From Bifidobacterium sp. (GTDB taxonomy: Bacteria; Actinomycetota; Actinomycetes; Actinomycetales; Bifidobacteriaceae), in assembly GCA_024104275.1 (NCBI GenBank), contig JAGGHK010000006.1:34385-98384 (forward strand): 64,000 nt of DNA, read 5' to 3'. The position numbers and the translations under genes are program-made. The number at the start of each line of letters is the position of its first letter. Positions within the stretch are counted from its first letter, which is position 1. The notes under the pieces were generated by a model. That model worked only from the letters and a program-made list of their open reading frames with translations. It had not been told where the DNA came from and did no database searches. This document shows, piece after piece, positions 23,639 to 62,669 of the stretch.

Positions 23639-23726
23639 TGCCTCTAACAGGTCAATCGTGCCCCTCGACGTATGTTTTAGCGGTAAAAAACAAACGGAAA
23701 GAGGCAGGAGTGACCTGTTAGGGGCA
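23639..23726. repeat. 88-bp palindromic element, copy 1
   Basis: Arms TGCCTCTAACAGGTCA (23639-23654) and TGACCTGTTAGGGGCA (23711-23726) are inverted around a 56-bp spacer with GTTTTAGCGGTAAAAA. The same arm-spacer-arm plan is present in copies at 49537, 61097 and 62582. Confidence 0.85.
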
Positions 23727-23849
23727 CGACCAGACGGCTAGAGGGCAGGACTGGCCTGTTACCTGTTAAAAGACAGGACTGACCGGTTAGCAGGGCTGAC
23801 CTGTTTGCACGACCGACCGGTTAAAGGCACGACTGACCTGTTAGAGGCA
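23727..23849 (+). repeat. Direct array of extra right arms next to copy 1
   Basis: After copy 1 the arm core TGACCTGTTA or a one- to two-base variant recurs in direct orientation at 23752, 23780, 23797, 23814 and 23834, usually next to GGCA or GGCACGA. Confidence 0.8.
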
Positions 23850-23889
23850 GCAATAACGGACGATGGAGGGGCGTCTTGCCTTTGACAGC

Positions 23890-23928
23890 AAAAGGGCGGT
23901 TCATGACATCGCATGAACCGCCCTTTGA
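23890..23928. terminator. Terminator after gpmA
   Basis: AAAGGGCGGTTCATG pairs with CATGAACCGCCCTTT around a short loop, 13 bp beyond the gpmA stop codon. Confidence 0.85.
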
Positions 23929-23940
23929 AAAGTCAGTGAC

Positions 23941-24687
23941 TTACTTCTTGGCCTGGCCTTGGGCAGCCACGGCAGCAGCGCCGGCGGCGGCGGCTTCGGG
24001 GTCGAGATACTCGCCACGAGGCTTGATCGGTTTCATGTTCTCGTCGAGCTCGTAAACCAGCGGAATGGCCGTCGGAATGTTGACCTTGGAGATTTCCTCT
24101 TCGCTCAAGCCGTCAAGCATCTTGACGATGGCGCGCAGGGAGTTGCCGTGCGCGGCGATCAGGACGGTCTTGCCGCTCTTCAACTCAGGGACGATCTCGG
24201 ATTCCCAGTACGGGGTGACGCGGGTGACGACGTTGGCCAAGGCCTCGGTCTCGGGGACCGGATCGCCGGCGTAACGCGGGTCGCTGTTCTGCGAGAACTT
24301 GTCGCTCGGATCGATTTCCGGCGGCGGGGTGCCATAGGAACGACGCCAGATCATGAACTTCTCGTCGCCGTACCTCTCGCGGATCTCGGACTTGTTCTTG
24401 CCTTGCAGGGCGCCGTAATGACGCTCGTTAAGCCTCCAGCTGCGCTTGACCGGAATCCAGAGGCGATCGGCCTCATCCAGTGCGTAGTTGGCGGTGTTGA
24501 TCGCGCGACGCAGCAACGAAGTGAAGACGATGTCGGGAAGGACGTTCTTCTCCTTGAGGAGCTGGCCACCGTGCTTGGCTTCCTCGACACCCTGCTCGGT
24601 GAGCGGGACATCGACCCAGCCGGTGAATTGGTTTGTTTTATTCCATGCGCTCTGGCCGTGCCGGAGCAATACTAATCTATAAGGCAT
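23941..24687 (-). CDS. gpmA: 2,3-bisphosphoglycerate-dependent phosphoglycerate mutase
   Basis: The 248-residue enzyme carries the phosphohistidine motif [10 protein letters not shown] (His10) and [15 protein letters not shown], with [12 protein letters not shown] and the second histidine in AAHGNSLRA. It interconverts 3- and 2-phosphoglycerate in the lower part of glycolysis, and in bifidobacteria in the lower half of the fructose-6-phosphate shunt. Length and motifs are standard. The C-terminus ends with an Ala-rich tail ([18 protein letters not shown]). It is a single-gene unit with its own terminator. Confidence 0.96.
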
Positions 24688-24814
24688 AGTTCAATGGTAG
24701 GCGATGAATGGGACGGTATGGCGGCAAAATTGTGAACGTTAACAGTACTGTCCGCCACGCACGCTCAAATCCCCTATGAACCTATTGCCACACCAAAGCC
24801 ACACCAATGGCCCA

Positions 24815-25852
24815 TTAGAGCGTCAGAGCGATCTCCACGACGATGAAGACGATCGAGAAGAGCAAGACCGTCATGCTCGCCATCGGCAGGGCCTTGACGA
24901 AGTTGCCGCCGTTGATGCTTTTGACAAGACCCGTTGCCGCCTTGATGCAGACCAGCGCGACGAGAATCGCAATAACCGCCCAGATAAGGCCGGCCACGCT
25001 GAAGTGACGGAACAACATCACCAAAGGAACGAAAGCGCCGACAACCGTGACGACCAGCGGAACCAGATAGGTGACGAACAGCACGGTCTGGGCGTTCTTC
25101 TGTCCGAGGCGCACACCGAGGGTCATCTTGCCGCTGATTTTGTCTTCATCGACATCACGGAGGTTGTTGACCATCAGGATGGCGCAGGAGAAGAGACCGC
25201 AGAGCACCGCGCCCAGGATACCTTCGGCGTTGACACGGCCGGTGAGCACGTATTGAGTGCCGAGCACCGCCACCAAGCCGAAGAAGATGAAGACGCCGAC
25301 TTCTCCGAAACCGGCGTAGCCGTAAGGATGCTTGCCGCCGACATAGAACCAGCCTGCAAGCAGGCAGACGATGCCAAGCGCAATAAGCCACCAGTGGCCG
25401 GTGATGATAGTGAGGGCGAGACCTGCGACGCAGGCGATGAAGGCGTTGACACCGGCGGCGGCGAGCACCTGACCCGGCTTGACACGTCCGGAAACGGTCA
25501 AACGCTGCGGTTTGGCGGTCTTGATTTCCGCGTCACCTCGGCCTTCATCGGTGCCGCGGATGCCATCCGAATAGTCATTGGCGAAATTGGCGGCGATCTG
25601 GATGAACAGCGCTACCACCACGCAGAGCAGCGCAAGCAAAGCGAACTTTCCCCATGGCATGCTGGCTGCTGGGGCGCTCAAGCCGCTGGGCTCAGCCACA
25701 CAAGTTTGAAGTTCTTTTGAGGCGGAAGCGCAACCTGCCGGTTGCAGTTTCAAAAGACGATATCCTGCAGCGACACCGACCAATACAGATGCAATGGATG
25801 CCGGTAACGTTTTCGGACGCAGCCCGTTGACCCACAAATCCAAGTTCTTCAA
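24815..25852 (-). CDS. menA: 1,4-dihydroxy-2-naphthoate prenyltransferase (MenA, UbiA superfamily)
   Basis: The 345-residue protein has about nine membrane helices and both aspartate motifs of the superfamily: NDYSDGIRGTD and RDVDEDKISGKMTLGVRLG. The RPKTLPASIASVLVG opening is typical of MenA. It attaches the polyprenyl chain to dihydroxynaphthoate, giving demethylmenaquinone at the membrane. A Cys/Ser/Ala-rich loop of about 35 residues (CASASKELQTCVAEPSGLSAPA) sits between helix 1 and the next segment. With the polyprenyl synthase, ndh and cydAB, it would provide the quinone of an aerobic chain; no other men genes are visible here. Confidence 0.88.
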   Translation of the reverse strand: MKNLDLWVNGLRPKTLPASIASVLVGVAAGYRLLKLQPAGCASASKELQTCVAEPSGLSAPAASMPWGKFALLALLCVVVALFIQIAANFANDYSDGIRGTDEGRGDAEIKTAKPQRLTVSGRVKPGQVLAAAGVNAFIACVAGLALTIITGHWWLIALGIVCLLAGWFYVGGKHPYGYAGFGEVGVFIFFGLVAVLGTQYVLTGRVNAEGILGAVLCGLFSCAILMVNNLRDVDEDKISGKMTLGVRLGQKNAQTVLFVTYLVPLVVTVVGAFVPLVMLFRHFSVAGLIWAVIAILVALVCIKAATGLVKSINGGNFVKALPMASMTVLLFSIVFIVVEIALTL

Positions 25853-26028
25853 CGCGATCCCAACTTCCTTAAAGGCGTATCGACGCTATTTTGCGACCGT
25901 ACACTACTTAAACCAGTAGAAACTATAGCAGGTTTGACCAAACCAGACTTTATACAAAAGTTGCTGTCCTATTAGAAGGCCAGCAACTGGTTCACATCAA
26001 TCGATGCATCAAGCAGACAGCATCAACA

Positions 26029-26063
26029 GTGCTTTGCTTGACAATCTTTATCAAGCAAAGCAC
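26029..26063. terminator. Terminator after lysS
   Basis: GTGCTTTGCTTG and CAAGCAAAGCAC form a 12-bp perfect stem around an 11-nt loop in the gap between lysS and menA. Confidence 0.75.
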
Positions 26064-26138
26064 CTTCGAAAATGAACCGAAAGCACAACACAGATGACGA
26101 CAAAAGAATGACGGGAACATTTCCCGTCTTCTTAGCGA

Positions 26139-27803
26139 CTAGTTCAGCGGCTTCACCAGCGGGAAGGTGATGGTCTCGCGGATGGTCGCGCCCGTGAGGG
26201 CAATGAGCAGACGGTCGATGCCCATGCCCATGCCTCCGGCCGGCGGCATGCCGACGCCCAGCGCCTCGAGGAAGTCCTCGTCGATGTCCATCGCCTCGAC
26301 GTCGCCCGCGAGCGCGTCCTTGGCCTGGTCGACCAGGCGCTGACGCTGCACCACTGGGTCGTTGAGTTCGGAATAGCCGGTCGCCAGCTCGAAGCCGCGC
26401 ACGTAGAGATCCCACTTCTCCACGACGCCCTTCTTGCTGCGGTGGGCCTTGACCAGCGGGCTGGTCTCGACCGGGAAGTCGCGCACGAAAGTCGGAACCT
26501 CGGCGCCCAGGCCGGCCTCGTAGAAGTGCTCCCAAAGGTGCTCGACCAGCTTGCCGTGATTCTCGACCTCGTCACGCTCCACGCCGAGCTTGTCGGCGAT
26601 GGCGCCCAAGTGCTCCACGGACGTTTCCGGCGTGATCTCCTCGCCGAGCGATTCGGAAAGCGACTCGTACATGGAAATCTGCTTCCATTCGCCGCCGAAG
26701 TCGTATTCGCTGCCGTCGAGCAGCGTCACCTTGGCGGAGCCGAACGCGTCGATGGCCGAGCGCTGGATGAGCTTTTTGGTCAACGCGGCGATGGTGTCGT
26801 AGTTGCCATAGGCCTGATAAGCCTCGAGCATCGTGAACTCCGGGGCGTGCGTGCCGTCGACGCCCTCGTTGCGGAAGTCGCGGTTGATCTCGAAGACGCG
26901 CTCAATGCCACCGACCAGGCAGCGCTTGAGGAACAGTTCCGGGGCGATGCGCAGGTAGAGATCGATATCGAAGGCGTTCATATGAGTGATGAACGGACGT
27001 GCCGCCGCTCCCCCGTGCACCGTCTGCAGCATCGGGGTCTCGACCTCGAGGAAGTCGTCTTTGGCAAACGTATTACGAAGCGAACTGACGACCTTGGAAC
27101 GCTTACGAACCATGTCACGAATCTTCTCATCGGCGATCATGCCGATATACGGCTTGCGGGTGCGGGTGTCTTCCGTGAGCTCCTTGTGCAAAGCGGGCAG
27201 CGGCTGCAACGCCTTGGCGGCGATCTTCCACTCGCTGGCGAAAACGGAAAGCTCACCGGTCTTGGAGGCGATCACGCGTCCCTTCAAATAAAGGTGGTCG
27301 CCGAGATCGACAAACTGCTTGAACGCTTTGAGCGAATCCGCGCCGATCTCCTTCTTGGAGATCATGCCCTGGATCTTGGTGCCGTCACCTGCGGCAAGCT
27401 GCACAAAACACAGGCCGCCGCCGTTGCGCAGGAAAAGCACACGTCCGGCGATGGAGACGACATCCTGCGTCTCTTCACCCGCGTTGAGCTTGCCATCATA
27501 TTTGGCGCGAACCTGCGGAATCGTGTCGTTGACCTCGACCACGACCGGGTAAGGCGCGACGCCGTCTTTGAGCATCTGGGCACGCTTGGCCACGCGCATC
27601 TGCACCTGCTCGGGCTGACCTTCCGGGCCGAATTCCTTGTTGGTCGGGTCGATGGACTCGTCGAACGACTTGCCTTCATTGATATTGGCCGCGATGGCCT
27701 CGTCCTGCTTAAGGCGCAATTCCGCACGCTCGACAGTGGACATTACCGGGGTCTGCGCCTCTTCTTCATTCCGGTTTTCGCCGGTTTCATTTGTTTCGTT
27801 CAT
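26139..27803 (-). CDS. lysS: Lysyl-tRNA synthetase, class II
   Basis: The 554-residue synthetase has an OB-fold anticodon-binding domain (APYPVVVEVNDTIPQVRAKY) and the class II motifs: motif 1 near FLEVETPMLQTVHGGAAARPF, motif 2 FRNEGVDGTHAPEFTMLEAY and motif 3 GMGMGIDRL. It charges tRNA-Lys. The start at 27803 has GAGGA upstream and yields a polar Glu/Asn-rich extension of about 60 residues before the catalytic core; a later ATG (MSTVERAE) is an alternative. It stands alone with its terminator. Confidence 0.95.
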   Translation of the reverse strand: MNETNETGENRNEEEAQTPVMSTVERAELRLKQDEAIAANINEGKSFDESIDPTNKEFGPEGQPEQVQMRVAKRAQMLKDGVAPYPVVVEVNDTIPQVRAKYDGKLNAGEETQDVVSIAGRVLFLRNGGGLCFVQLAAGDGTKIQGMISKKEIGADSLKAFKQFVDLGDHLYLKGRVIASKTGELSVFASEWKIAAKALQPLPALHKELTEDTRTRKPYIGMIADEKIRDMVRKRSKVVSSLRNTFAKDDFLEVETPMLQTVHGGAAARPFITHMNAFDIDLYLRIAPELFLKRCLVGGIERVFEINRDFRNEGVDGTHAPEFTMLEAYQAYGNYDTIAALTKKLIQRSAIDAFGSAKVTLLDGSEYDFGGEWKQISMYESLSESLGEEITPETSVEHLGAIADKLGVERDEVENHGKLVEHLWEHFYEAGLGAEVPTFVRDFPVETSPLVKAHRSKKGVVEKWDLYVRGFELATGYSELNDPVVQRQRLVDQAKDALAGDVEAMDIDEDFLEALGVGMPPAGGMGMGIDRLLIALTGATIRETITFPLVKPLN

Positions 27804-27943
27804 AATCCTCGAGTGTACCGAGCAGCCGATACACGCTATGATTTTGCGGTTCAATGACCAATAAACATGTAGGTAAATATGCATGCCGACACGCATACTG
27901 GACTCGTCCGCGGGGTCGTTGTATCATGATTGCTGTTGTTCAT

Positions 27944-28020
<77 letters not shown>

Positions 28021-28025
28021 ACTAG

Positions 28026-28050
28026 AAACCCCTTGTTTTGCAAGGGGTTT
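28026..28050 (+). terminator. Terminator after tRNA-Pro
   Basis: AAACCCCTT and AAGGGGTTT form a 9-bp stem with a T-rich end. The 170 bp beyond hold the promoter region of the MFS gene. Confidence 0.8.
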
Positions 28051-28223
28051 CGTCATGTCTAAGACGTAGCGGATACGTCGTTTCACCTCATTATTATGGC
28101 ATTAACGAGAAGAGGACTCCCGACCATTATCCGTGTCTGGTTTGCCAGGTCTGTATCTATAAGACGTTACTGCTATAACGCGGCACCACGGAAAATTACG
28201 GAGTCGATTCGCAAGGAGTCAAG

Positions 28224-29411
28224 TTGAAGAAAAGCCTGCTCGCACTAGCCTGCGGTGCGTTCACATACGGGGCCTCGGAATTCGTGATGATGGGCATCCT
28301 GCCCCAAGCGGCACGGGACATGCACGTCAGCATCCCCACGGCCGGCAATTTCATTTCGGCCTATGCCATCGGCGTGTGCATCGGCACGTTGATGCTTATT
28401 TTCGGCCGTAAAATGGGACCGAAAAAGCTTATCCTCATCTTCATGTCCATCGCCTTTATCGGCGACCTGTTCAGCTCGTTCGCCCCGAACGCCACGCTGC
28501 TCGTCATCGGTCGCTTCATCTCCGGGCTCCCGCATGGCGCATTCTTCGGCACCTCAGCCCTCGTAGCCAAAACGCTGGCCGACCCCGGAAAGGAAGCCAA
28601 AGCGGTCAGCCTCACCATCACCGGCCAGACAGTCGCCAATATGCTTGGCGTGCCGGCCGGGACGTTCATCGCGGAGTATGTTTCCTGGCGTCTGGCATTC
28701 CTTATCCTTGCCGGCGTCGCAGCCCTGACCGTCGTACTGGTGGCGGTGTGGGTGCCGCATATCGAACCGGTCAAGGACACCGGCATCCTCGGCCAGTTCA
28801 AATTCCTGAGAAAGCCGGGGCCCTGGGTTATTCTGCTCGCGGTGTTCACCGGCAACACCGGCATCTTCAGTTGGTGGAGCTACGTTTCCCCATGGCTGCA
28901 GAAAGTCGGCGGCTACGCTTCCGGCACCGTCCCGTTCTTGATGATGCTTGCCGGTTTCGCAATGGTGATCGGCGGGCTGGCCGGCGGACATTTGACCGAC
29001 CGTTGGCGCAGTGCGGGAACGGCAGGACTTGGCCAGTGCTTGAGCGTCATCGGCATGGTTCTGGTCTTCTTCGTACCCGGCAACAAAATCGACACGGCTA
29101 TCTTCACGTTCGTCATTGCTTTCGCCATGTTCTTCGTCTCCACCCCGCAACAGCTGCTGATGGCCGAAGCCGGTGAAGGCGGCGGCGAACTGATCGGCGG
29201 TGCCGCAGTGCAGGTCGCGTTCAATTTCGGCAATGCGGTCGGTTCCATGGTCGGCGGCGGCATGCTCACCATGTCGCATATGAACTATCATTTCATCGCT
29301 CTGGGTGGCGTCCCCTTCGCCTTGGCAGCCACCACCCTGCTCGCCGTCTATTCATTGCATTACGAAACCGATACCGACGCCTACGAACGCTTGCAGCCTA
29401 TTGACGTGTGA
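28224..29411 (+). CDS. MFS efflux transporter of the AraJ/DHA1 type
   Basis: The 395-residue protein has twelve membrane helices. The first repeat contains the efflux motif LALACGAFTYGASEFVMMGILPQAARDM and, after helix 2, LIFGRKMGPKKLIL (motif A). Helix 4 and 5 carry RFISGLPHGAFFGTSALVA and GQTVANMLGVPAGT, the antiporter motif C region. It is closest in look to proton-coupled drug or sugar exporters of the AraJ/YdhP group; the substrate is unknown. The start is a TTG at 28224 with AAGGAG 5 nt upstream. It is a single-gene unit. Confidence 0.88.
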   Translation: MKKSLLALACGAFTYGASEFVMMGILPQAARDMHVSIPTAGNFISAYAIGVCIGTLMLIFGRKMGPKKLILIFMSIAFIGDLFSSFAPNATLLVIGRFISGLPHGAFFGTSALVAKTLADPGKEAKAVSLTITGQTVANMLGVPAGTFIAEYVSWRLAFLILAGVAALTVVLVAVWVPHIEPVKDTGILGQFKFLRKPGPWVILLAVFTGNTGIFSWWSYVSPWLQKVGGYASGTVPFLMMLAGFAMVIGGLAGGHLTDRWRSAGTAGLGQCLSVIGMVLVFFVPGNKIDTAIFTFVIAFAMFFVSTPQQLLMAEAGEGGGELIGGAAVQVAFNFGNAVGSMVGGGMLTMSHMNYHFIALGGVPFALAATTLLAVYSLHYETDTDAYERLQPIDV

Positions 29412-29506
29412 GAAACCCGTAGTCTGGATTCGTCCGCGGGAAAGCGCTTAGGCATAGTCGGATACCGTTGCTTCATATGACGGATTCGCAACCTACATTT
29501 CAGAAA

Positions 29507-31726
29507 TCAACGCTTGGAATCAGCTGAATCGGCTCCGGTCGATGTGTGGGATTCGCGGCCTGAGCATAGGAAGCCGATCACCATGGGGGTAATCAGCACC
29601 AGCTGAAAAACGAACCTCGTGGGCGAAGGGCGGCCCGGCCTTGAAAGGCTTTCGGCGCAGACATAGAGGCTCGCGGCAGTCAACAGCCACGGCATGCATT
29701 TGAGTAGCAGGCTTCGGCCTGAGGACACGGCACGAGTCATAAGATCGTCAGCAAGCCGTTTGTTGCCAAGATCGACAGCATCAAAACGCCGGGAATCAAC
29801 TGTCTTGTTATCGGCTTGGACCAATCCGTTCGTTCTATCGTCCGAATGGTCATCAACGTTATCGTTGTTCCGCCCCAGCGCAAGGATTTCCCGTCGTTGT
29901 TCTTTCCTGCGCCTCCACAAGCAATACAATACGAACCCCGGCAAAACCGATGTCCACAACGCCATGAAGAACGGGATATTGATACCTGGCGTATCGAGGA
30001 TGGTGCGGTAAAGCTGTTTCACAGTCTCACTGCCCTCGGTGGGCGGGGTGTGCGGCTGGAGCACGCCATAGGTGTACGAAGTGTCGGAGGTGGTCATCGG
30101 CAGCATCGCCACCGAAACCGGCTTGGGAATGGGCTGATCCTTGACGCTGAACGCATCGAAGGTCATCCAGCCCGCTTCCAAGCAGAAAAAGCCCTGCACG
30201 TACGAATCGGGATGACGCAGGCCGACGTCAAGCCACGCCTTGGCAAACCGCGAAATCGGCACCTTGCCTTTCACCGTCCAGCCGATGGCCGGAACCGCAA
30301 GCCACGGGTCATAGTCCCCGCTGATTTCACTCCATGAATATTCGAGATAGCCGTCGACGGCCTCGCGGTCGGATTCGCTAATATCGTAGGGATCATCGTA
30401 GGCTGCTCGGGCCATCATCTGAATCGGCAAGGCGAGCGCGGCCTCCGGCGTGCCGGGCACGACGTTGATGTGTTTGTAGGCGAATTTCGGTAAGGCCATA
30501 TCCACAATGACGAACAGCACCACCGCCAGCGCCACCAAAGCAGCCTTGAGTTTCGCGGCAAACCTGCCAATAAGCAAAGCAAGCAGACAAAGCACGACAA
30601 TATAGAGCCCGAGTTTCTTGGTCAGGGCGACCAACAGTCCGTCAAGTGCGAACGCGGTGACAAACCAAGGGTTGCGAACGAGATCGAGTTTGCTGTCGAC
30701 CAGTTTGCAATACATTACTGCCCACGGAACAAAAAACATCGCGCTGGTCGTGTCTTTGGCGATTGACATGACGCACATCGGCACGACCGGGAAGAAACAG
30801 AAGAACGCCGCCAAACCGTACAGCATCCTACGGTTGAGATTGCTTTTGCTTAGGTATGCCAACAGCCAGGCGATGCCGAACGCGAAGCCTACGGCCTGCA
30901 GAAGCGCATAGATATACATGCCGATGTTGTAATTATCGAAAAGCGCCTTGCCAAGCGACGCGAACCAGCCGTATACATAGGTATCGAGGAAGGGATGATG
31001 GTCCCAGATCTTGCCCGCGTTCATCCCGTAGAGCGGCATGCCGTAATATTCCGCGATCTGGTCGCCGGTATCGAAGTGGATCACGCCCGGGAAGAGCAGA
31101 ATGATATACGGCAGCCAGCAACACAGCAATATCGACGCATCGGCGGCGATGGCGGCAGGACGTTCGACGTAACGGAAATGGAAGTAACGGCGGACAGCAG
31201 CGAAACGCTTGTGAGGATTGACGGCAGAGGCGATAACCACGGTTCCCTTTTCAGACGAAAACGCGGAATTGGTGTTGTCTGTGTCGTTTTTCGAAGTATT
31301 TTTTGCAGGTACTTCGTTTTCAGCGGCGCTTGCCTTGAATCCATTGCCGGAACGCTCGAATGGGTGGGTTCTCGCAAATTCCACGCCGCGATAAGCAACC
31401 ATATACAACAAAGCGAACAGTACCGCATAGCAGACCGCCTGCAGATAAAGGTAGACGTGGTCGAAGGGAACCCAACCAAACTGCGCGGCCTGACTTGAGC
31501 AGGCGACCATGAAGCCAAGCACGGCGGGAATCAGCCAACCGACTTTCGAGGGCCGCAGAAAGTTGACGAACGTTGACCAAATCCCCATGCTGGCAGGTTC
31601 GGCTGGAATTGATGCACTTTGACGATTGCCGACATTATCGCCGCCGCGCGAACCGGCTGCGAGATCGGCGGATACCCTTGAAACCGCCAACACATCGCCG
31701 GACTGGCCAATTCCCCTATCCTTCAC
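29507..31726 (-). CDS. Large polytopic membrane protein (GT-C-like, DUF6020 type)
   Basis: The 739-residue protein has about 12 to 14 hydrophobic segments. A luminal-type acidic loop after an early helix contains HFDTGDQIAEYYGMPLYG and a DHHPFLDTYVYGWFASLG block, reminiscent of GT-C glycosyltransferases that use lipid-linked sugars. A large outside loop (about 150 residues, near residues 450-600) precedes the last two helices. This architecture recalls the DUF6020 family of actinobacteria. The GTG at 31726 is chosen because AGGGGAG lies 5 nt upstream. A role in cell-envelope glycosylation is possible but unproven. It diverges from the TPR-DUF4037 gene. Confidence 0.7.
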   Translation of the reverse strand: MKDRGIGQSGDVLAVSRVSADLAAGSRGGDNVGNRQSASIPAEPASMGIWSTFVNFLRPSKVGWLIPAVLGFMVACSSQAAQFGWVPFDHVYLYLQAVCYAVLFALLYMVAYRGVEFARTHPFERSGNGFKASAAENEVPAKNTSKNDTDNTNSAFSSEKGTVVIASAVNPHKRFAAVRRYFHFRYVERPAAIAADASILLCCWLPYIILLFPGVIHFDTGDQIAEYYGMPLYGMNAGKIWDHHPFLDTYVYGWFASLGKALFDNYNIGMYIYALLQAVGFAFGIAWLLAYLSKSNLNRRMLYGLAAFFCFFPVVPMCVMSIAKDTTSAMFFVPWAVMYCKLVDSKLDLVRNPWFVTAFALDGLLVALTKKLGLYIVVLCLLALLIGRFAAKLKAALVALAVVLFVIVDMALPKFAYKHINVVPGTPEAALALPIQMMARAAYDDPYDISESDREAVDGYLEYSWSEISGDYDPWLAVPAIGWTVKGKVPISRFAKAWLDVGLRHPDSYVQGFFCLEAGWMTFDAFSVKDQPIPKPVSVAMLPMTTSDTSYTYGVLQPHTPPTEGSETVKQLYRTILDTPGINIPFFMALWTSVLPGFVLYCLWRRRKEQRREILALGRNNDNVDDHSDDRTNGLVQADNKTVDSRRFDAVDLGNKRLADDLMTRAVSSGRSLLLKCMPWLLTAASLYVCAESLSRPGRPSPTRFVFQLVLITPMVIGFLCSGRESHTSTGADSADSKR

Positions 31727-49536: not shown

Positions 49537-49644
49537 TGCCCCTAACAGGTCAGTCGTGCCTCTCCACGTTTGTTTTTGGCCACTAAAACCTACGTCTACG
49601 GGCAGTATTGACCTGTTTAGGGGCATCACTGACCGGTTAGGGGC
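49537..49644. repeat. 88-bp palindromic element, copy 2, with one extra arm
   Basis: Arms TGCCCCTAACAGGTCA (49537-49552) and TGACCTGTTTAGGGGCA (49609-49625) flank a spacer with TTTTTGGCCACTAAAACCTA. An additional direct arm TGACCGGTTAGGGGCA ends at 49644. It lies between DUF421 and DUF3290. Confidence 0.85.
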
Positions 49645-49724
49645 AGGATTCCGGCACAGTTTCGGCCAGAACCACGTAGTTCGCAGCATGATCCGGAAAT
49701 GGTGGCGGTCGACACGACTTTCAC

Positions 49725-54751: not shown

Positions 54752-54783
54752 TTCACCGGCTTGGCCTCTCCCGTTGGCCGTTG

Positions 54784-54950: not shown

Positions 54951-55000
54951 TTACTAGACTTAAGCCAGACACCAAATGCTGAAGCATCCGGCCGTTCCGC

Positions 55001-55715: not shown

Positions 55716-55840
55716 ACGGCAGAAAATGAACAAAATGGCCCTCGATTCTGTCCATTCTCTGCCGTCAACTCGACCTCTTTACCTATAACGGCAGTAAATG
55801 GACACAATACGCGCAGATATTGTTCATTTTCTGCCGTTAT
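55716..55840. repeat. Two hairpins built from four copies of one arm
   Basis: ACGGCAGAAAATGAACA (55716-55732) pairs, with two mismatches, with 55749-55765. The related ATAACGGCAGTAAATGG (from 55785) pairs with 55818-55840. All four arms share CGGCAG-A/T-AAATG, so different pairings are possible. The gap between tpx and bS22 is otherwise empty. Confidence 0.75.
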
Positions 55841-55962
55841 CCAAAGGACTTGTAGTCTGAAAAATCTGGCGAACTTGACCTTTCCGCAAGACCAAAATCG
55901 CTGCGGCAAAACAAAAAGGCCCGGAGCCGAACGACCCCGAACCTTCTATGAAAAGCTTTATA

Positions 55963-56052
55963 CTACTTGCGCTGATGACGAGTCTTACGCAGCAGTTTGC
56001 GGTGCTTCTTCTTGCTCATCCGCTTGCGGCGCTTCTTGATGACAGAACCCAT
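55963..56052 (-). CDS. Small ribosomal protein bS22 (AURKAIP1/COX24-domain)
   Basis: This 29-residue, extremely basic protein (begins [20 protein letters not shown]) is the short actinobacterial bS22, a subunit of the 30S ribosome near the decoding region. Its GGAGG lies 7 nt before the ATG. Its length and Lys/Arg composition are as expected, and it is too small for most gene finders. It is a single-gene unit. Confidence 0.93.
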
Positions 56053-56212
56053 CTGAAGCCTCCAATCCTTGACTGTAAGTTTGCAACTTAACTTATCGTA
56101 CTCGCTCTTGCCGACTTAAAACGCCATGTCGCCGATATTCGGTGACCAAATGCGAATCGTACAGCGGGCGTCTATATTCGAAACATTCGAACCATCGTCT
56201 CGAGATATCGTT

Positions 56213-56830
56213 CTAAAGCGGGAACTTCGAATAGAACCGCTGAATCGAATCCTTGGGACCGGTGGCCTGGAAGACAACGGTATCGTTCTGCCAAACGGCC
56301 GTAGCGGTCTTGGCCTTGCCGCCGCTGGCCTTCACCACGTATTTGCCCGTGGCATTGCCGGAAACCTTGACATCGCCGCTGGCCACATCCGTGCCCTTGA
56401 GCGCGCCGGTCAACGTGCCGTATTGGGTTTTCGCGCCGTCAGCACTCGACCATTGCGCCACCACCAAAGTGACATCCTTGGCCGCATTCCCGGTCGAATA
56501 GGTGAGCGTATACTCCTCCAGCGGTGAGGCGGAAGTCCAATTGGCGCTCGGAGCGGACTCCGTGCGGGCGAAATTGAGAACGGTGTCGGGCATCGCCTTG
56601 AGCAACGGCGTGGCATCCTGCGGCAATTCCTTGGCCTTGATGCTCGGCGTGGTGGGCTCCGGCTTGGCGGACGTCGTTTGCTGCTGCTTCTGCTCGTCGC
56701 TGGCCGACTTGTTCATCGCCCATCCCGGCCACACAAACGCGGAAAGCAAGGCGAGAACGATGACCACCGCGGCCGCGACCACGACAGCAATCAACTTGCC
56801 ATGAGAAGAAGATTTTTGTTCACTCGACAT
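56213..56830 (-). CDS. Membrane-anchored secreted-domain protein of unknown function
   Basis: The 205-residue protein has a short basic N-terminus, one membrane segment (LIAVVVAAAVVIVLALLSAFVW, about residues 12-33), a Gln/Thr/Pro-rich linker and an external domain of about 140 residues. That domain is rich in Ala, Thr and Gly and has a beta-rich pattern (EEYTLTYSTGNAAKDVTLVVAQWSSADGAKTQYG). No family is recognised. The frame also opens at 56839 (MAAMSS). It may help maintain the envelope, but only its location is clear. Confidence 0.7.
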   Translation of the reverse strand: MSSEQKSSSHGKLIAVVVAAAVVIVLALLSAFVWPGWAMNKSASDEQKQQQTTSAKPEPTTPSIKAKELPQDATPLLKAMPDTVLNFARTESAPSANWTSASPLEEYTLTYSTGNAAKDVTLVVAQWSSADGAKTQYGTLTGALKGTDVASGDVKVSGNATGKYVVKASGGKAKTATAVWQNDTVVFQATGPKDSIQRFYSKFPL

Positions 56831-56939
56831 AGCCGCCATTATTTCACATCGTGCTGACGCTCAGCGATGAGGAAATCCTGTCGTCGTTTCAAAGACGAAC
56901 CACGGACTTTAGCCGACAAAGCACGCGTTGCAATGACAA

Positions 56940-57095
56940 TTCTCGATTTTTTAGGCCTCTTGGCGCACCAAGAAGGCCAAAAATCGAAGAATCGACGCAA
57001 ATCCCATCTTTTTGAACCTCTTGGCGCGCAAAGAGGTTCAAAAATCGAAGAATCATCACTCAATCTCGTTATTTTCGGCAACTTGGCGCGCCAAG
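56940..57095. repeat. Three-part palindromic array sharing CTTGGCGC
   Basis: A hairpin at about 56941-56990 and a second at about 57010-57055 both have CTTGGCGC in the loop, and each is followed by AAAAATCGAAGAATC. A third element CTTGGCGCGCCAAG (57082-57095) is a perfect 14-bp palindrome. The rest of the 400-bp gap before radA has no gene. Confidence 0.7.
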
Positions 57096-57224
57096 ATACT
57101 TCATATTTCGTGATTTGAGATTTCAACATGGGATTTTCCTGATTGACCGAAAACGCCATACCCTTTTTCATAAGTTTTGTGAGCCAAAACCTTGAGAGGG
57201 CTTGCTCTTGTCGGCGAAATTGGC

Positions 57225-57230
57225 TAGCGT
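57225..57230 (+). promoter_or_regulatory. -10 box of the likely leaderless radA gene
   Basis: TAGCGT is followed by 7 nt and the ATG at 57238. TTGCTC lies 17 bp upstream as a -35 candidate. Confidence 0.5.
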
Positions 57231-57237
57231 CGGCATC

Positions 57238-58662
57238 ATGGCTAAGAATGCGACACAATACGTCTGCTCGGAGTGCGGATGGAACGGCGTGAAATGGTAC
57301 GGACGCTGCCCCGAGTGCGGTGCATGGGGCACCATCGAGGAGTTTCACGAGGCACGGCCCGCCCCCGCGTCGCGAACCGCCGCGCCCGGACGCACCTCGC
57401 GCACGCAGGCCAGTTCCGCCGTCATCGCCGGCAGCGCCGCCGCCAAGCCGATTACGGAGATCTCGACCGAAGGCGTAAAACGAATCCCCACCGGCTTCGA
57501 CGAGTTTGATCGCGTGTTGGGCGGCGGCATTGTGCCAGGTTCGGTCGTCTTGGTCGCCGGCGAACCGGGTATCGGCAAGTCCACGCTGCTCCTGGAAACC
57601 GCCGGCAACGCGGCGCGAAACCATCCCAAGAAATCAGTCCTCTATATATCCGGCGAAGAATCCCAGGCACAGGTGCGCATGCGGGCCTCCCGTATCAACG
57701 CCATGGAAAGCAACCTGCTGCTGGCCTCCACCACCGACCTCGCCACCGTGCTCGGTCTGATCGAACAGGAGAAGCCGAGCCTCGCCATCGTGGATTCGGC
57801 GCAGACCATCGTCTCGCAGGATGTCGATGGCATCTCCGGCGGCTCGACCCAGGTGCGCGAGGTGGCCAGTGCGCTTATCGACACCGCCAAAACGCTTGAC
57901 ATCCCGGTCATGCTGGTCGGCCACGTCACCAAAGACGGCTCCATCGCCGGCCCACGTACGCTGGAACATTTGGTGGATGTGGTCTGCCAGTTCGAGGGCG
58001 ATGCGCAGACCGCCCTGCGCATGCTGCACGCGGCCAAGAACCGTTTCGGCCCCACTGACGAGGTAGGCTGCTTCGATATGAGCGGTGAAGGCATCGAGGA
58101 GGTCAGCGACCCTTCCGGTCTGTTCCTTTCCACTGAGGATGCGCCGGTCGAAGGCACCTGCGTCACGTTCACACTCGACGGCCACCGCAGCCTGCCGATC
58201 GAGGTGCAGGCGCTCGTCACGAAATCCGTGCTGCCTACGCCCCGCCGCAACACCAATGGCATTGATTCCAACAGACTCGCCATGCTTTCGGCGGTGCTTT
58301 ATCGTCACGGCCGTGTGAATCTTTTGGCGAACGACCTTTACGTTTCGACCATCGCGGGCGGGCTGGCCAAGGAGCCGGCCTGCGATCTGGCCATCGTCGC
58401 CGCGCTGGCGAGCGCCGCCACATCGAAACCCATCGCCCGCACCACCTGCGCGATGGGTGAGATTTCGTTGACCGGCCAGGTGCGCCCCGTCCCCCAGCTT
58501 TCCCACCGCCTGAACGAAGCCGCACGTCTGGGCTTCACCCGCGCCGTGGTCCCCACCCATCGCGGCCGTCGCGCCATCAAGGCCGTCAAGGGCTTGGAGA
58601 TCGTAGAGGTCTCGTCCCTGCGAGACACTTTGGATGCGTTGGGTGTCTCAAAAGGAAGATAA
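57238..58662 (+). CDS. radA: DNA repair protein RadA
   Basis: The 474-residue protein has the N-terminal zinc finger Cys10, Cys13, Cys24 and Cys27, a RecA-like core with Walker A at 109-116 (GEPGIGKS) and the RadA signature KNRFG near residue 263. A C-terminal Lon-like domain follows (LTGQVRPVPQLSHRLNEAARLGF). It processes recombination intermediates by branch migration. It is a single-gene unit with a leaderless-like start. Confidence 0.96.
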   Translation: MAKNATQYVCSECGWNGVKWYGRCPECGAWGTIEEFHEARPAPASRTAAPGRTSRTQASSAVIAGSAAAKPITEISTEGVKRIPTGFDEFDRVLGGGIVPGSVVLVAGEPGIGKSTLLLETAGNAARNHPKKSVLYISGEESQAQVRMRASRINAMESNLLLASTTDLATVLGLIEQEKPSLAIVDSAQTIVSQDVDGISGGSTQVREVASALIDTAKTLDIPVMLVGHVTKDGSIAGPRTLEHLVDVVCQFEGDAQTALRMLHAAKNRFGPTDEVGCFDMSGEGIEEVSDPSGLFLSTEDAPVEGTCVTFTLDGHRSLPIEVQALVTKSVLPTPRRNTNGIDSNRLAMLSAVLYRHGRVNLLANDLYVSTIAGGLAKEPACDLAIVAALASAATSKPIARTTCAMGEISLTGQVRPVPQLSHRLNEAARLGFTRAVVPTHRGRRAIKAVKGLEIVEVSSLRDTLDALGVSKGR

Positions 58663-58806
58663 TGAATCCATCAGCCTTCAATACTTCCGGCATCCTTGAA
58701 TTAGGAAAATGCGAAGAATAAGAAATTGATAGAATAGCTCGAGATACTACAGACCGCAGCAAAGGCCGGGTCATCGTTTTTGAACAAAAGCATTGAAAGG
58801 CAAACA

Positions 58807-59532
58807 ATGAGCGTTGCATTTGAGGATATGAGCGAGTACGCACAACATGTGGTGAAGGCGCTGGACCTTGAGGCGCATCCCGAGGGCGGCTGGTACCGGC
58901 AGACCTGGCTGAGCCTGCAGGCCGCGGCGGGTACGGCGACGCAGCAGGCTGCCGAACGCGGGAAAACACAACGCGGTATCGACGGCGATGCACCCCAACA
59001 GGCTACAGAACACAGGCAGATGCAACATGACAGCGACAGCGGCACCAATGCCGGAAATCCGGCAGATTCCGGCAACGCCAATGCCTCATATTCCGACGAA
59101 ACCTACGCGGCAACTGAAGCCGACCTCAAATCGATGCAGGCGACGGAAGGCCGGCCGTTGGCCTCGCTGATCTACTTCCTGCTAGCAGAGGGCGACGCGA
59201 GCGCCTGGCACAAGGTGGATGCCACAGAAATCTGGCTTTGGCATGGTCCCGCCACCGTCGGCCTTGAGCTGGGCGGCTACGGCGACGCCCCGGCCGACGA
59301 ATCTGACCGCACGCTTTATACGCTCGGGCAAGGCCTCGCATCGGTCAATCCCAACGCGACTGACACTACACCGCAGATGGATGTCCAAACGCCAGATTTG
59401 TCGTCAACACCTGTCGGTCAAGTGGTCATCCCCGAAGGCTGCTGGCAGCGCACCGTACCCGGCAAAGGCGACGCACTGGTCTCCTGCGTGGTCAGCCCCG
59501 GTTTCACTTTCGACAGTTTCACGCTCGAATAA
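58807..59532 (+). CDS. DUF985-type cupin with a low-complexity insertion
   Basis: The 241-residue protein has the DUF985 cupin signatures: LEAHPEGGWYRQTW near the start, LASLIYFLLAEGDASAWHKVDATEIWLWHGP with the likely metal-binding His/Glu in mid-protein, and CVVSPGFTFDSFTL near the end. About 77 residues rich in Gln, Ala, Asn and Ser are inserted between the first and second blocks (residues 37-113, DNA 58915-59145), where other members run on directly. It may bind a metal and a small sugar-like or sulfur ligand; function is unknown. AAAGG precedes the ATG at 58807. Confidence 0.82.
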   Translation: MSVAFEDMSEYAQHVVKALDLEAHPEGGWYRQTWLSLQAAAGTATQQAAERGKTQRGIDGDAPQQATEHRQMQHDSDSGTNAGNPADSGNANASYSDETYAATEADLKSMQATEGRPLASLIYFLLAEGDASAWHKVDATEIWLWHGPATVGLELGGYGDAPADESDRTLYTLGQGLASVNPNATDTTPQMDVQTPDLSSTPVGQVVIPEGCWQRTVPGKGDALVSCVVSPGFTFDSFTLE

Positions 59533-59554
59533 GTAAAACGGCGGCCAAGCCTCC

Positions 59555-60841
59555 TCATTTCGCGCCGGTGATCGACAAGGTCTGGTCGGCGTAATCCTTT
59601 AACGCGGCCTTGAGCTCGTCAGTGCCGTCGAACCTGACCTGTCCACGCAGGAACTGGGTGAATTCCACACGCACCTTGTGATCGTAAAGTTCAAGCCAGT
59701 CGTCGGTGACACAGTACGGCTCGATGACGCGCTCGTGGATACCTGTCTCGTCGCTATACGTCGGCTTGGTACCGATGGAAATCGCGGCCGGCCAGCGCCA
59801 CGGCGAGCCTGGAGCCATGCGCATTTCGTCCGAGGGCGACGCAAGATTAGCGGCATTGACGTGACTGGATGTGCCACTCTTGCCAACACCTTTTGCGTCG
59901 TTGCCGACATTGGCATCGTTCGCATCATTCCCGGTCTTCATTCCATCGTCGATCGGCCCCAAATCAACCAACCAACCGGCATACACGCCATCGACCGGCA
60001 CATATCCTTCGACCACCTGCGAAAGATTCGCGGTCGGAAAGCCGATCTCGCGCCCACGTTGCTCACCGTGCACCACCGTGCCTTCGACAGCGTGATCGTG
60101 CCCCAGAATCTCGGCGGCGGCCTTCACGCATCCCTGCGAAAGCAAATAACGTACGTTCGACGAGCTCCAGACCCGTACTTTGCGGCAATTGTTTTTCTTC
60201 GTCCACGCACGCAGCTCAGTCTTGTTCATGCCCTCTCGCGGGTCTTGCGGCTCACCTATTCCTTCCGGCATCTTGGGTTCAAAATGTAACGGCACCCACG
60301 TATAGCCGGGTCCCAAATCGTCGACCACGTCAAGCTCGAAGACGCGAGTGGCCTCGCAAAGCTCTTGAATGGACTTGATATCGCCTTTCCGATTCGCGCC
60401 CAACGCCGCGTCCTGCCCGAGCACGAGCGTACGCATACCGAGCTTGCCGACCATCTGGCCCAGGAAGAAACGGAACGATTTGGCCGCGAACGCCAGCGTA
60501 TAATGCAATACGATTACACGGTCGACACCAAGCCTGTCCATCATTCGCGCGCGCTGCTCGACGGAACTCAGCGCCTGAGTATCCACGAAATCCTGCGGCA
60601 GATCCATACCGTCATGTTCGTTGGCGTAGGTATGCGCGAGCGCAGGCCTAGGGTCGAGGACCATCACAACGGCCAGGGAATCGGTCTGCTTCGCCAGTTC
60701 CACGACGCGACGAACCACGGCCTGATGGCCCTTGTGCATGCCGTCGAACACGCCAATCGTCATGACCGCGCGCTTGTGCGAGCTCAAGGTGGGCCAATCC
60801 ACCAATCCGTTAGCGTCGGGTGTCAACCTGGTGATCTTCAT
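59555..60841 (-). CDS. ribF: Bifunctional FMN adenylyltransferase/riboflavin kinase
   Basis: The 428-residue enzyme has the N-terminal FAD synthetase domain (GVFDGMHKGHQ near residues 30-40) and the C-terminal riboflavin kinase domain (GREIGFPTANL near 264). It makes FMN and FAD. Two low-complexity insertions, about 188-220 (PEGIGEPQDPREGMNKTEL) and 298-347 (GNDANDANVGNDAKGVGKSG), extend it well beyond the usual 310-330 residues. The ATG at 60841 follows AAAGGA. FAD from this enzyme would serve NDH-2. No FMN riboswitch is seen upstream. Confidence 0.94.
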   Translation of the reverse strand: MKITRLTPDANGLVDWPTLSSHKRAVMTIGVFDGMHKGHQAVVRRVVELAKQTDSLAVVMVLDPRPALAHTYANEHDGMDLPQDFVDTQALSSVEQRARMMDRLGVDRVIVLHYTLAFAAKSFRFFLGQMVGKLGMRTLVLGQDAALGANRKGDIKSIQELCEATRVFELDVVDDLGPGYTWVPLHFEPKMPEGIGEPQDPREGMNKTELRAWTKKNNCRKVRVWSSSNVRYLLSQGCVKAAAEILGHDHAVEGTVVHGEQRGREIGFPTANLSQVVEGYVPVDGVYAGWLVDLGPIDDGMKTGNDANDANVGNDAKGVGKSGTSSHVNAANLASPSDEMRMAPGSPWRWPAAISIGTKPTYSDETGIHERVIEPYCVTDDWLELYDHKVRVEFTQFLRGQVRFDGTDELKAALKDYADQTLSITGAK

Positions 60842-61096
60842 CAAAATCCTTTGTCTTGTTTGCCGGAAACCAGTTTATCAGCCGCGTCGCCCGTGCGAAA
60901 GCCCCCCTTTCTTGTGGCTTTACGCGGCCTACGAAAACGCACCTTGCACCACGTTGCAGTAAACGTATGCTCTGCGGTAACATGTCGGGATTCGTATGTT
61001 CGGCACAAAAGCAGTTCCTCACGCATACGTTATTCCAAGAATCCCATTGCATTGCTCTCGTTACTCGCTGAAGTCCTGCCGCAAACCGACTATTCC

Positions 61097-61184
61097 TGCC
61101 ACAAATCGGTCACTAATGCCCCTTCCCGTTGATTTTCGAAGCTAAAAACCTACGGCCGGAGGCACTAATGACCGATTTGTGGCA
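61097..61184. repeat. 88-bp palindromic element, copy 3
   Basis: Arms TGCCACAAATCGGTCA (61097-61112) and TGACCGATTTGTGGCA (61169-61184) are perfect complements. The spacer has GTTGATTTTCGAAGCTAAAA and CCTACG as in copy 4. An extra degenerate left arm TGCCGCAAACCGACT starts at about 61077. Confidence 0.88.
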
Positions 61185-61271
61185 CAAGCATAAACAACCA
61201 AGCACATTTTGGCCGAACCAATTCTCATAGAACGCAACGTTGGCCGACTTATCTGTGTAACTCTACAAAGT

Positions 61272-61383
61272 TGTTGATAACCCTCACGTGACACAACAAA
61301 TTTATGGATTCCACCCATGCGACACCACGGTTTTGTGGATAAGTCTGCTCGCTAACCGGTGGATAGAGGGAAAGTTATCCACA
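61272..61383. promoter_or_regulatory. Cluster of DnaA-box sequences
   Basis: Perfect 9-mers TGTGGATAA (61334-61342) and TTATCCACA (61375-61383) face each other. TGTTGATAA (61272-61280) is one mismatch away and GGTGGATAG (about 61359) two. They lie within 112 bp of an A/T-richer gap between ribF and the next gene. dnaA, dnaN and rpmH are not in this window. Confidence 0.5.
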
Positions 61384-61452
61384 GACACGCCGAGAGCGGC
61401 ATCATTCGACCACAGTACCCGTTTCAGCTTGCCTGCACCACACAAAAGAAGT

Positions 61453-61458
61453 TAGCGT
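61453..61458 (+). promoter_or_regulatory. -10 box of a likely leaderless gene
   Basis: TAGCGT is followed by 6 nt and the ATG at 61465. TTGCCT at 61429-61434 is a -35 candidate with an 18-bp spacer. Confidence 0.45.
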
Positions 61459-61464
61459 TGCCTT

Positions 61465-62418
61465 ATGGGACAATACACAAACAAGGCCAACCGACTTCTG
61501 ACGCAAGCAGAAGCTGAGCGGCGCTACTGCTACGGCACAAACGAGAGCCAGTGCAGAGCTCTCTTGCGTCTTAAACAGCATGGAAAGCTCGTTAGCCCAT
61601 ACCACAACGTATATGTCAGAACCGACTATTTCAAAACACTGAATCCCATCCAAAAGGCACAACATCTGGCTCGCACCCTTACGCTCATCCATCCACACTG
61701 GCAGTTCGCAGGACCGAGCGCTGCGGCAATGCTTGGATTGAATGTCCCTTGGTCGATGCTTAAACTCGTCTACATCGCCACACAACACTCCATTGCGAGG
61801 CATGCCGAACCGCATTTACGACGCATCTTCATTCCACGCCCGAAACGATGGAAAGCTTCCGGCGTTTCCGTGACAGAACCGGCTCGTACTCTGGTGGATT
61901 GCGCATTGCGTTTTCCATTCGAGCAGATACTTGGCGTCTTCGACTCAGCGCTAGCCAAAGGCCTCCTGCTCGAATCTCAAGTGGAATCCGTATGCACTTC
62001 AATCAGAGCTGATACATCGCCGGTTTCAAAGCTACTGCGATACGCGAACGGCTTGAGCTCGAATGGCGGCGAATCGCGTTGCCGAGCACTGATTATTGAA
62101 TCCGGTTTCGCGGTTCCAGAGCTGCAGCATAAGTTCATCGACCCTCGAGACGGCAGGAAATATTACACAGATTTCCTGTGGCAACGCCCTGACGGACGAA
62201 TGATCGTGCTGGAATATGACGGATTGGAGAAATACACCAATCCAGAAATGGCCGGCAATCGCAGCACTTGGGGAGTAGTCAACGAGGAACGGCAACGGGA
62301 ATCGGCATTGAAACGGGCAGGCGTGAGCGATATTCGAAGAATCTCGTCTGCGGAAATCAATGAACCGGACCTGTTGGCAAGCCGTTTGGAACAAGCAGGC
62401 GTACCAAAACTCTCGTAA
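61465..62418 (+). CDS. AbiEi-like wHTH protein with a DUF559/Vsr-like nuclease-type C-terminus
   Basis: The 317-residue protein starts with a winged-helix-like region resembling the AbiEi antitoxin fold, followed by a middle domain with the typical ARTLVDCALRFPFEQILGVFDSALA. The C-terminal part has Glu203 (GGESRCRA), Asp236 (YYTDFLW) and Glu250-x-Asp252 (VLEYDG), which look like a PD-(D/E)XK set of the DUF559/Vsr group. Such proteins are common in bifidobacteria and are often named as abortive-infection or TA components, but no toxin gene is next to it. The start is leaderless-like. Its GC is somewhat lower than its neighbours, so horizontal gain is possible. Confidence 0.7.
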   Translation: MGQYTNKANRLLTQAEAERRYCYGTNESQCRALLRLKQHGKLVSPYHNVYVRTDYFKTLNPIQKAQHLARTLTLIHPHWQFAGPSAAAMLGLNVPWSMLKLVYIATQHSIARHAEPHLRRIFIPRPKRWKASGVSVTEPARTLVDCALRFPFEQILGVFDSALAKGLLLESQVESVCTSIRADTSPVSKLLRYANGLSSNGGESRCRALIIESGFAVPELQHKFIDPRDGRKYYTDFLWQRPDGRMIVLEYDGLEKYTNPEMAGNRSTWGVVNEERQRESALKRAGVSDIRRISSAEINEPDLLASRLEQAGVPKLS

Positions 62419-62581
62419 GCCGCGAACGCCAAGCGTAGAGCGTTTCCGCCAATCCGTCTTCTTCCCCACCCTTCCCAACGACTAATTGAGAACTACGCAT
62501 CCCCTCGGTCGGTATGGTTACGCGCATAACCCATTTGCAAATGTCATGCTGTTACTATCCCTGCTAATCCTGCTGGACTCC

Positions 62582-62669
62582 TGCCACAAACCGGTCACTG
62601 ATGCCCCATCGCGTTGATTTTCGAAGCTAAAAACCTACGTCATGGGGCACTAGTGACCTATTTGTGGCA
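62582..62669. repeat. 88-bp palindromic element, copy 4
   Basis: Arms TGCCACAAACCGGTCA (62582-62597) and TGACCTATTTGTGGCA (62654-62669) are inverted with two mismatches. The spacer shares GTTGATTTTCGAAGCTAAAA and CCTACG with copy 3. It lies in the 390-bp gap before the surface protein gene, which holds no other gene. Confidence 0.88.

What the first reader, a model, noticed from the sequence alone, without database searches (positions are those of the whole stretch)
23639..62669. A dispersed 88-bp palindromic element occurs four times in the window
Copies at 23639-23726, 49537-49625, 61097-61184 and 62582-62669 are 88, 89, 88 and 88 bp long. Each has 16-17 nt inverted arms built on TGCC-N2-(T/A)AAC-(A/C)GGTCA and a related spacer that includes a TTTT run and CTAAAA-CCTACG. 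The constant length with diverged sequence points to a defined family, such as a small non-autonomous mobile element or a conserved RNA/DNA structure. All copies are intergenic.
Basis: seen in the sequence. Interest (0 to 1): 0.72.

Follow-up and report, generated by a model that had tools for sequence, protein, structure and literature searches.

The report
Nuclease gene with dispersed cognate palindromes
An 88-base palindrome scattered through a bifidobacterial chromosome also brackets a nuclease-like gene whose relatives mostly carry different palindromes of their own, which looks like a selfish gene-plus-repeat system.

Summary
The four copies are real (c1 is in the opposite orientation) and belong to a family of at least 17 places in this genome, 88-89 bp each. 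None shows a terminator signature or an Rfam match. In 46 Bifidobacterium family loci, 40 have a strong ~88-bp dyad beside the gene and 32 share repeats between left and right flanks (phoU control: 11 and 0 of 30). No protein pair below 45% identity shares flank repeats (0 of 690). A second paralogue's palindrome is dispersed too. Outside the genus 16 of 29 loci share left/right repeats, against 2 of 812 cross-locus pairs. In Bifidobacterium 32 of 46 genes have a DnaA-box-like site upstream, 0 downstream. The unit is present or absent at one chromosomal spot among related species. Best reading: a REPtron-like selfish element with an enzyme other than a RAYT. The pairing is shown; binding, cutting and mobilisation are inferred. 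Against it: no target-site duplication, orphan repeats (G087), no clean empty site, no structure.

The parts
23639..23726 (-). palindrome copy c1 (opposite orientation to c2-c4)
23727..23850 (+). degenerate outward half-units (about 16-21 bp apart, up to 3 mismatches) after c1
49537..49625 (+). palindrome copy c2 (89 bp)
49626..49646 (+). one extra outward half-unit after c2
61077..61092 (-). one degenerate outward half-unit before c3
61097..61184 (+). palindrome copy c3, left bracket of the gene
61334..61414 (+). leader: DnaA-box-like sites 61334-61342 (-) and 61375-61383 (+), ACACGCC 61385-61391, TTCGACCACA 61405-61414
61465..62418 (+). 317-aa protein: AbiEi-like N-terminal and central part, PD-(D/E)XK-type C-terminal part (E203, D236, E250xD252, K256)
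62582..62669 (+). palindrome copy c4, right bracket of the gene

Best explanation
The palindromes are the dispersed cognate repeats of the nuclease-like protein encoded at 61465-62418. Each palindrome is an inverted pair of two 20-bp units around a T4-N8-A4 centre. Shown by sequence: the gene is bracketed by copies, other copies are scattered between other genes, and paralogues in the family mostly have their own, different repeats. Inferred: the AbiEi-like part binds the units as AbiEi antitoxins bind inverted repeats; the PD-(D/E)XK part cuts or nicks at or near the palindrome or its hairpin; repair or replication of the break copies palindromes, and sometimes the bracketed gene, into intergenic sites; and the leader with a DnaA-box-like site ties expression to replication initiation. 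It would thus work like a REPIN/RAYT system, with a different enzyme.
For: At least 17 places in this genome and 13 of 112 genus genomes with model matches, own included (those of G037 are a different sequence). In 46 family loci: dyad >=24 of 40 in 64 of 92 flanks, at least one flank in 40 of 46 loci, left/right repeat sharing in 32 of 46 (31 with the leader cut off); phoU control 12 of 60, 11 of 30, 0 of 30 (Fisher p 3e-9 for flanks, 9e-11 for sharing). Specificity: 0 of 690 pairs below 45% identity share flank repeats, 23 of 23 pairs at >=70% do, 0 of 21 same-genome paralogue pairs do (some high scores reflect shared neighbour genes). A second paralogue's palindrome is dispersed: 10 matches in G089, 7 of them away from its gene; 3 away in G092, 1 in G091. 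Outside the genus own-flank sharing is 16 of 29 against 2 of 812 cross-locus pairs. Nuclease residues are invariant in 25 of 25 aligned proteins; an AbiEi model matches 23 of 25 at E<=1, best 1.8e-8, window protein 2.4e-6; a distant member matches DUF559 over its cut-off, and the distant members' alignment matches ours over 277 columns (E 8e-51). DnaA-box-like site upstream in 32 of 46, downstream 0 of 46, phoU upstream 1 of 30. The gene unit lies between ettA and a thioesterase-like gene in 3 of 10 genomes examined and is absent there in 7; orientation differs between carriers. Arms covary within genome strata while positions 27-30 do not.
Against: No target-site duplication of 5, 6 or 8 bp next to the 88-bp ends in 72 copies; 2 of 72 match at 4 bp, and 1 of 72 at 5 bp if the ends are moved out by 4 bp. 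No clean empty site: the nearest (G090, ribF locus) shows homologous edges but no sharp junction, and by eye a half-element-like remnant. G087 carries 14 full-length repeats of two subfamilies, but its two family genes carry other repeats, so repeats can exist without a cognate gene; G091 and G092 have 6 and 4 places and no close cognate gene (best 49% and 48% identical). In G012 the cognate gene is broken. The close relative in G083 is bracketed by a different palindrome. Some repeats stay at the same site in several species (phoU-gpm in five): vertical persistence rather than recent movement. Within this genome alone arm covariation is modest (329 against 317.9 +- 4.2; 17 of 2000 shuffles reach it) and absent at positions 31-40. 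Six of 46 loci have no flank at >=24. The control is one gene family, and some of the 46 loci are orthologues, so counts are not independent. By crude gene of 100 places overlap some ORF. No protein structure was obtained.
Confidence: 0.6

Rival explanations
1. Operator network: the AbiEi-like protein is a DNA-binding regulator; the bracketing palindromes are autoregulatory operators and the dispersed copies a regulon. Movement is not involved.
For: AbiEi and Rv2827c bind 23-bp inverted repeats at their own promoters (PMC7319586, abstract and section 14 read). Some sites keep the same gene neighbours in several species.
Against: Copies lie in all orientations of neighbouring genes (52 tandem, 31 convergent, 17 divergent of 100 by crude gene calls), including the convergent phoU-gpm site. 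Repeats lie downstream of the gene as well as upstream. Nuclease residues are invariant. Sites are absent in relatives.
Confidence: 0.2
2. Guard or defence system: the nuclease attacks invading DNA, and the genomic palindromes are decoys, self-markers or binding sinks.
For: AbiEi models of a phage-defence library match 23 of 25 members at E<=1. Flank repeats differ between paralogues.
Against: Neither neighbour of the gene in the window matches a toxin family in Pfam. Between palindromes and gene only ORFs of 55 and 59 aa (threshold 50) were found in five loci checked.
Confidence: 0.1
3. Miniature inverted-repeat transposons of an ordinary DDE transposase.
For: Short, dispersed, palindromic, presence/absence between species.
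Against: No target-site duplication. The gene between c3 and c4 has no transposase match. No search for a DDE insertion sequence with these ends was made beyond the half-unit pattern.
Confidence: 0.04
4. Structured RNA or bidirectional terminators of the flanking genes.
For: Strong folding and covarying arms. A chance-level terminator-like match lies 11 bp beyond c3 (2 found in the stretch, 2.6 expected).
Against: No terminator-like site within any of the four copies. By eye a separate hairpin lies next to gpm in occupied and empty phoU-gpm loci. Divergent sites exist. No Rfam family at the copies.
Confidence: 0.04

Closest known systems
REPIN/RAYT systems (REPtrons)
   Same: Dispersed extragenic inverted pairs able to form hairpins, fixed spacing, compensatory changes, enzyme gene near or flanked by its own repeats (PMC3116915 abstract and section 10 part 1; PMC3733652 passages).
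   Different: No Y1 tyrosine transposase found in this genome; the bracketed protein is AbiEi-like plus PD-(D/E)XK-like; four 20-bp units per element; no GTAG or CGTC foot seen by eye in the alignments.
AbiE type IV toxin-antitoxin, antitoxin AbiEi / Rv2827c
   Same: AbiEi-like regions; AbiEi proteins bind inverted repeats in their own promoter (PMC7319586).
   Different: Additional C-terminal nuclease-type part, no toxin family match beside it in the window, repeats on both sides of the gene and dispersed over the chromosome.
DUF559 / REase_MTES_1575 (Pfam)
   Same: A distant member of the same family (L280) matches DUF559 over its cut-off and REase_MTES_1575 below its cut-off. That both belong to the PD-(D/E)XK group is recalled.
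   Different: The Bifidobacterium members scanned do not match DUF559; no link of these families with dispersed palindromes showed in my searches.

Membership tests
REPIN/RAYT | Y1 (HUH) REP-associated tyrosine transposase in the genome | tested here: not met
   PF01797: 0 of 1 genome (own only, 94.85% complete); 5 of 14 control genomes ring. Other element-bearing genomes not tested.
REPIN/RAYT | Inverted doublets forming hairpins, dispersed in extragenic space | tested here: met
   gene context of the 100 places is heuristic
REPIN/RAYT | GTAG or CGTC tetranucleotide at the hairpin foot | tested here: not met
   ends are mostly TGCC...GGCA or TGCT...AGCA, often preceded by TCC; read by eye
REPIN/RAYT | Enzyme gene flanked by its own repeats | tested here: met
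   met with a different enzyme: 40 of 46 loci with a flanking dyad, 32 of 46 sharing left/right
AbiE toxin-antitoxin | AbiEi domains | tested here: met
   PADLOC AbiEi model 23 of 25 members at E<=1; of 10 distant members, Pfam AbiEi_4 over its cut-off in L273, L274 and L279, AbiEi_1 over its cut-off in L274; 5 of the 10 match nothing at E<=0.1
AbiE toxin-antitoxin | Adjacent AbiEii (DUF1814) toxin gene | tested here: not met
   window neighbours are a riboflavin kinase/FAD synthetase gene and a 339-aa ORF without Pfam match; other loci not searched for it
PD-(D/E)XK nuclease | Conserved catalytic residues | tested here: met
   E203, D236, E250, D252, K256 invariant in 25 of 25; E, D and ExD invariant in 8 of 8 distant members, the K not. 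The motif itself is recalled.
PD-(D/E)XK nuclease | Fold and nuclease activity | not testable with these tools
   structure prediction not available; no convincing solved relative by sequence
MITE of a DDE transposon | Target-site duplication | tested here: not met
   0 of 72 at 5, 6 and 8 bp next to the 88-bp ends
Known structured RNA | Match to an Rfam family | tested here: not met
   only five tRNAs in the window at gathering scores

The most novel reading that the evidence does not exclude
A new class of autonomous selfish element found in several lineages of Actinomycetota: a one-gene unit (AbiEi-type DNA-binding part fused to a PD-(D/E)XK nuclease) bracketed by palindromes that it recognises and spreads through the chromosome, with recognition sequence and protein co-diverging in each lineage and, in Bifidobacterium, expression tied to replication through DnaA.
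Probability: 0.35. Interest if true: 0.9.

Novelty: new variant of a known kind. Interest (0 to 1): 0.8.

Why it matters
What makes intergenic palindromes in bacteria without RAYT transposases is open; the REP survey PMC3733652 (passages seen) says that CGTC repeats apparently lack a dedicated transposase. Here a gene family with predicted nuclease residues is statistically tied to its own palindromes, with different sequences for different paralogues, in Bifidobacterium and other Actinomycetota. That gives a directly testable enzyme-substrate pair and a natural series of diverged specificities, and may reinterpret solitary 'AbiEi family antitoxin' genes.

Tried and rejected
Integron attC sites, IS21-type ends and CIRCE-like operators were considered from memory and dropped for lack of fit; no test was run on them. 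The Opitutae/Verrucomicrobia pattern hits (L012-L014, L016) do not show the palindrome. blastn with c4 found no match in plasmids, with a G087 element none in plasmids or phages; c4 was not searched in phages. The first flank statistics used wrong gene coordinates for L173, L177 and L182; they were redone, where L182 and the broken G012 gene (L166, L214, L220) were left out and each gene was used once; family genes without a fetched locus were not examined. A first protein-versus-flank comparison was spoiled by an N spacer and redone. Whether the A4/T4 polarity follows gene direction was judged by eye only; no consistent relation was seen. Of 100 fetched places, 28 failed the filter of at least 24 of 44 pairs in register and were dropped before the pair statistics; 62 of the remaining 72 entered and 52 of 72 the stratified test.
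Full report
What is there. The four copies were read and aligned. c1 aligns to the others as its reverse complement. The element is a near-perfect dyad: outer unit of 20 bp (TGCC-N2-WAACCGGTCA-NTNN), inner unit of 20 bp (TGCC...CGTNNNTTTT), eight central bases, and the mirror images. Length is 88 bp with few exceptions. The four copies fold much better than shuffles on both strands. No Rfam family matches them and no terminator-like site lies within a copy; one chance-level match lies 11 bp beyond c3.

A genome-wide family. blastn in the window's own genome gave 23 matches at E<=1, both strands counted. A covariance model from 14 copies gave 17 places at E<=1e-8, 88-89 bp each, and two weak ones; 14 of the 17 built the model. 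In the genus 13 of 112 genomes have matches, own included, counted further. G037 matches a palindrome of unrelated sequence. One hundred places were fetched and read. Subfamilies differ in sequence but keep the architecture; 72 of 100 passed a palindrome filter. At position 28 of these 72, 40 copies have A/A or T/T (unpaired) and 21 A/T or T/A. Shuffling right arms within genomes (62 copies) gives 1297 pairs at positions 1-26 against 1135 +- 21, none of 2000 shuffles reaching it, and 80 against 114 +- 11.5 at positions 27-30. Stratified by genome and inner-unit letter (52 copies) this is 1090 against 1047 +- 10, 0 of 2000 reaching, and 68 against 91 +- 10. For this genome alone (15 copies) it is 329 against 318 +- 4, with 17 of 2000 reaching, and no excess at positions 31-40. 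Copying history could produce part of this.

Where copies sit. Neighbours look like core genes; the window's were tested with Pfam, the others judged by eye from translations; names such as gpm, ettA, ribF and 'thioesterase-like' are partly recalled. Crude gene calls put 39 of 100 places over some ORF, mostly short. Several sites are shared by species: by eye, phoU-gpm carries an element in G000, G092, G087, G082 and G091 and none of this family in G083, G084, G085, G086, G088, G089, G090 and G025 (13 loci read; G083 has another repeat array there). By eye a separate hairpin lies next to gpm in these loci. No target-site duplication was found.

The gene. c3 and c4 bracket a 317-aa gene. It has no Pfam or NCBIfam match of its own. 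Relatives occur in 94 of 112 genus genomes; close ones lie next to family elements in G082, G093 and G012 (broken in G012). Alignment of 25 members shows invariant S-x-NGGES, D236, E250-x-DG and K256, a PD-(D/E)XK signature by established knowledge. A PADLOC AbiEi model matches 23 of 25 at E<=1 (best 1.8e-8) and Pfam AbiEi_1 5 of 25 at E<=1. Of 10 distant members found by profile, Pfam AbiEi_4 is over its cut-off in L273, L274 and L279, AbiEi_1 in L274 and DUF559 in L280; five match nothing. The alignment of eight of them matches ours over 277 columns at E 8e-51.

Paralogues have their own repeats. Scanning the flanks of family genes for dyads showed palindromes or arrays of different sequence at most of them. 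With corrected coordinates for 46 loci: 64 of 92 flanks with dyad >=24 of 40, 40 of 46 loci with at least one, 24 with both, 32 sharing repeats between left and right; phoU control 12 of 60, 11 of 30, 1 of 30, 0 of 30. Some control dyads are this family's own elements (L132, L133, L143), which makes the control conservative; it is one gene family only. Sharing between loci follows protein identity: 0 of 690 pairs below 45%, 1 of 225 at 45-50%, 12 of 64 at 50-55%, 10 of 24 at 55-60%, 2 of 9 at 60-70%, 23 of 23 at 70% or more; 21 same-genome paralogue pairs stay at background. Some high scores are shared neighbour genes, not palindromes. The loci are the better-scoring ones for which DNA was held, not a random sample, and include orthologues. 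Against strict pairing: G087 has 14 full-length repeats but its two family genes carry other repeats.

A second test of dispersal. The palindrome beside another paralogue (48% identical) was searched in 10 genomes: 7 match at E<=0.01. G089 has 10 matches, 7 of them away from its gene, some partial; G092 has 3 and G091 1 away from the gene; G086 only at its gene. G084, G082 and G085 have 4, 1 and 1 weaker matches; G083, G088 and G090 none.

The leader. Upstream of the gene lies GTTATCCACA-ACACGCC-N-TTCGACCACA in various states. TTWTMCACA occurs within 400 bp upstream in 32 of 46 loci (41 sites) and in none downstream; phoU has it upstream in 1 of 30. TTCGACCACA with at most one mismatch occurs within 220 bp in 37 of 46, ACACGCC in 32 of 46, both in 27; 0 in 60 control flanks. 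That TTATCCACA is the DnaA box is established knowledge; binding was not tested. None of 29 loci outside the genus has TTWTMCACA there.

The unit comes and goes. Between ettA and a thioesterase-like gene the gene is present in G082, G083 and G093 and absent in G084, G085, G086, G089, G090, G091 and G092. Taking ettA as forward, the gene is forward in G093 and G082 and reversed in G083; in G082 the thioesterase-like gene is inverted. The G083 gene is bracketed by a different palindrome. In this genome the unit lies between ribF and a 339-aa ORF, which in G090 are about 219 bp apart without it; the edges align but no sharp junction can be drawn.

Beyond the genus. A profile search found 42 of 396 sampled genomes of the phylum, own included, with a match at E<=1e-10 (at most five candidates scored per genome, so a lower bound). 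Of 29 loci outside the genus, 16 share left and right flank repeats against 2 of 812 cross-locus pairs; dyads >=24 lie in 36 of 58 flanks (23 of 29 loci) against 4 of 174 mononucleotide shuffles.

Interpretation. Pairing of a nuclease-like gene family with its own palindromes is shown statistically. That the protein binds them follows by analogy with AbiEi and Rv2827c, which bind 23-bp inverted repeats (PMC7319586, abstract and section 14). That it cuts and spreads them is inferred from the conserved active site, the dispersal and the presence/absence of the unit. REPINs (PMC3116915, abstract and section 10 part 1) are the closest functional analogue, but no Y1 transposase was found in this genome. 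Against: orphan repeats in G087, the broken gene in G012, vertical persistence of sites, and no target duplication.

Literature. Searches (open-access full texts only, top rows listed) showed no paper whose title or printed abstract start connects AbiEi or DUF559 genes with dispersed palindromes; papers not named above were seen in listings only. PMC3733652 was seen in passages.

Noticed in passing
L236 (G085), L238 (G086), L233 (G089), L239 (G092): gap between ettA and the thioesterase-like gene: Another hairpin family (for example GGGGATATGCGATG ... CATTGTATATCCCC) occupies the gap that holds the gene unit in other species, so this gap may be a hot spot.
   Followed up: no
L140 (G083), downstream of phoU: A tandem repeat of about 60 bp containing AAAACCTACG and CCACAAACCCATG lies where other species carry the 88-bp element.
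   Followed up: no
L121-L126 (G037): A roughly 90-bp palindrome family built on TGCGCGCA and AGCGTAAC matches the model by structure but not by sequence.
   Followed up: partly
window 62807-63826 (-): 339-aa ORF without Pfam match beside c4; among the stretches read only that of G090 has it next to ribF.
   Followed up: partly
L211 (own genome C13:42097-43059): Second family gene of this genome with an in-frame TAG and its own flanking repeats.
   Followed up: partly
L189, L178: Family genes flanked on both sides by arrays with a 62-64 nt period instead of single palindromes.
   Followed up: partly
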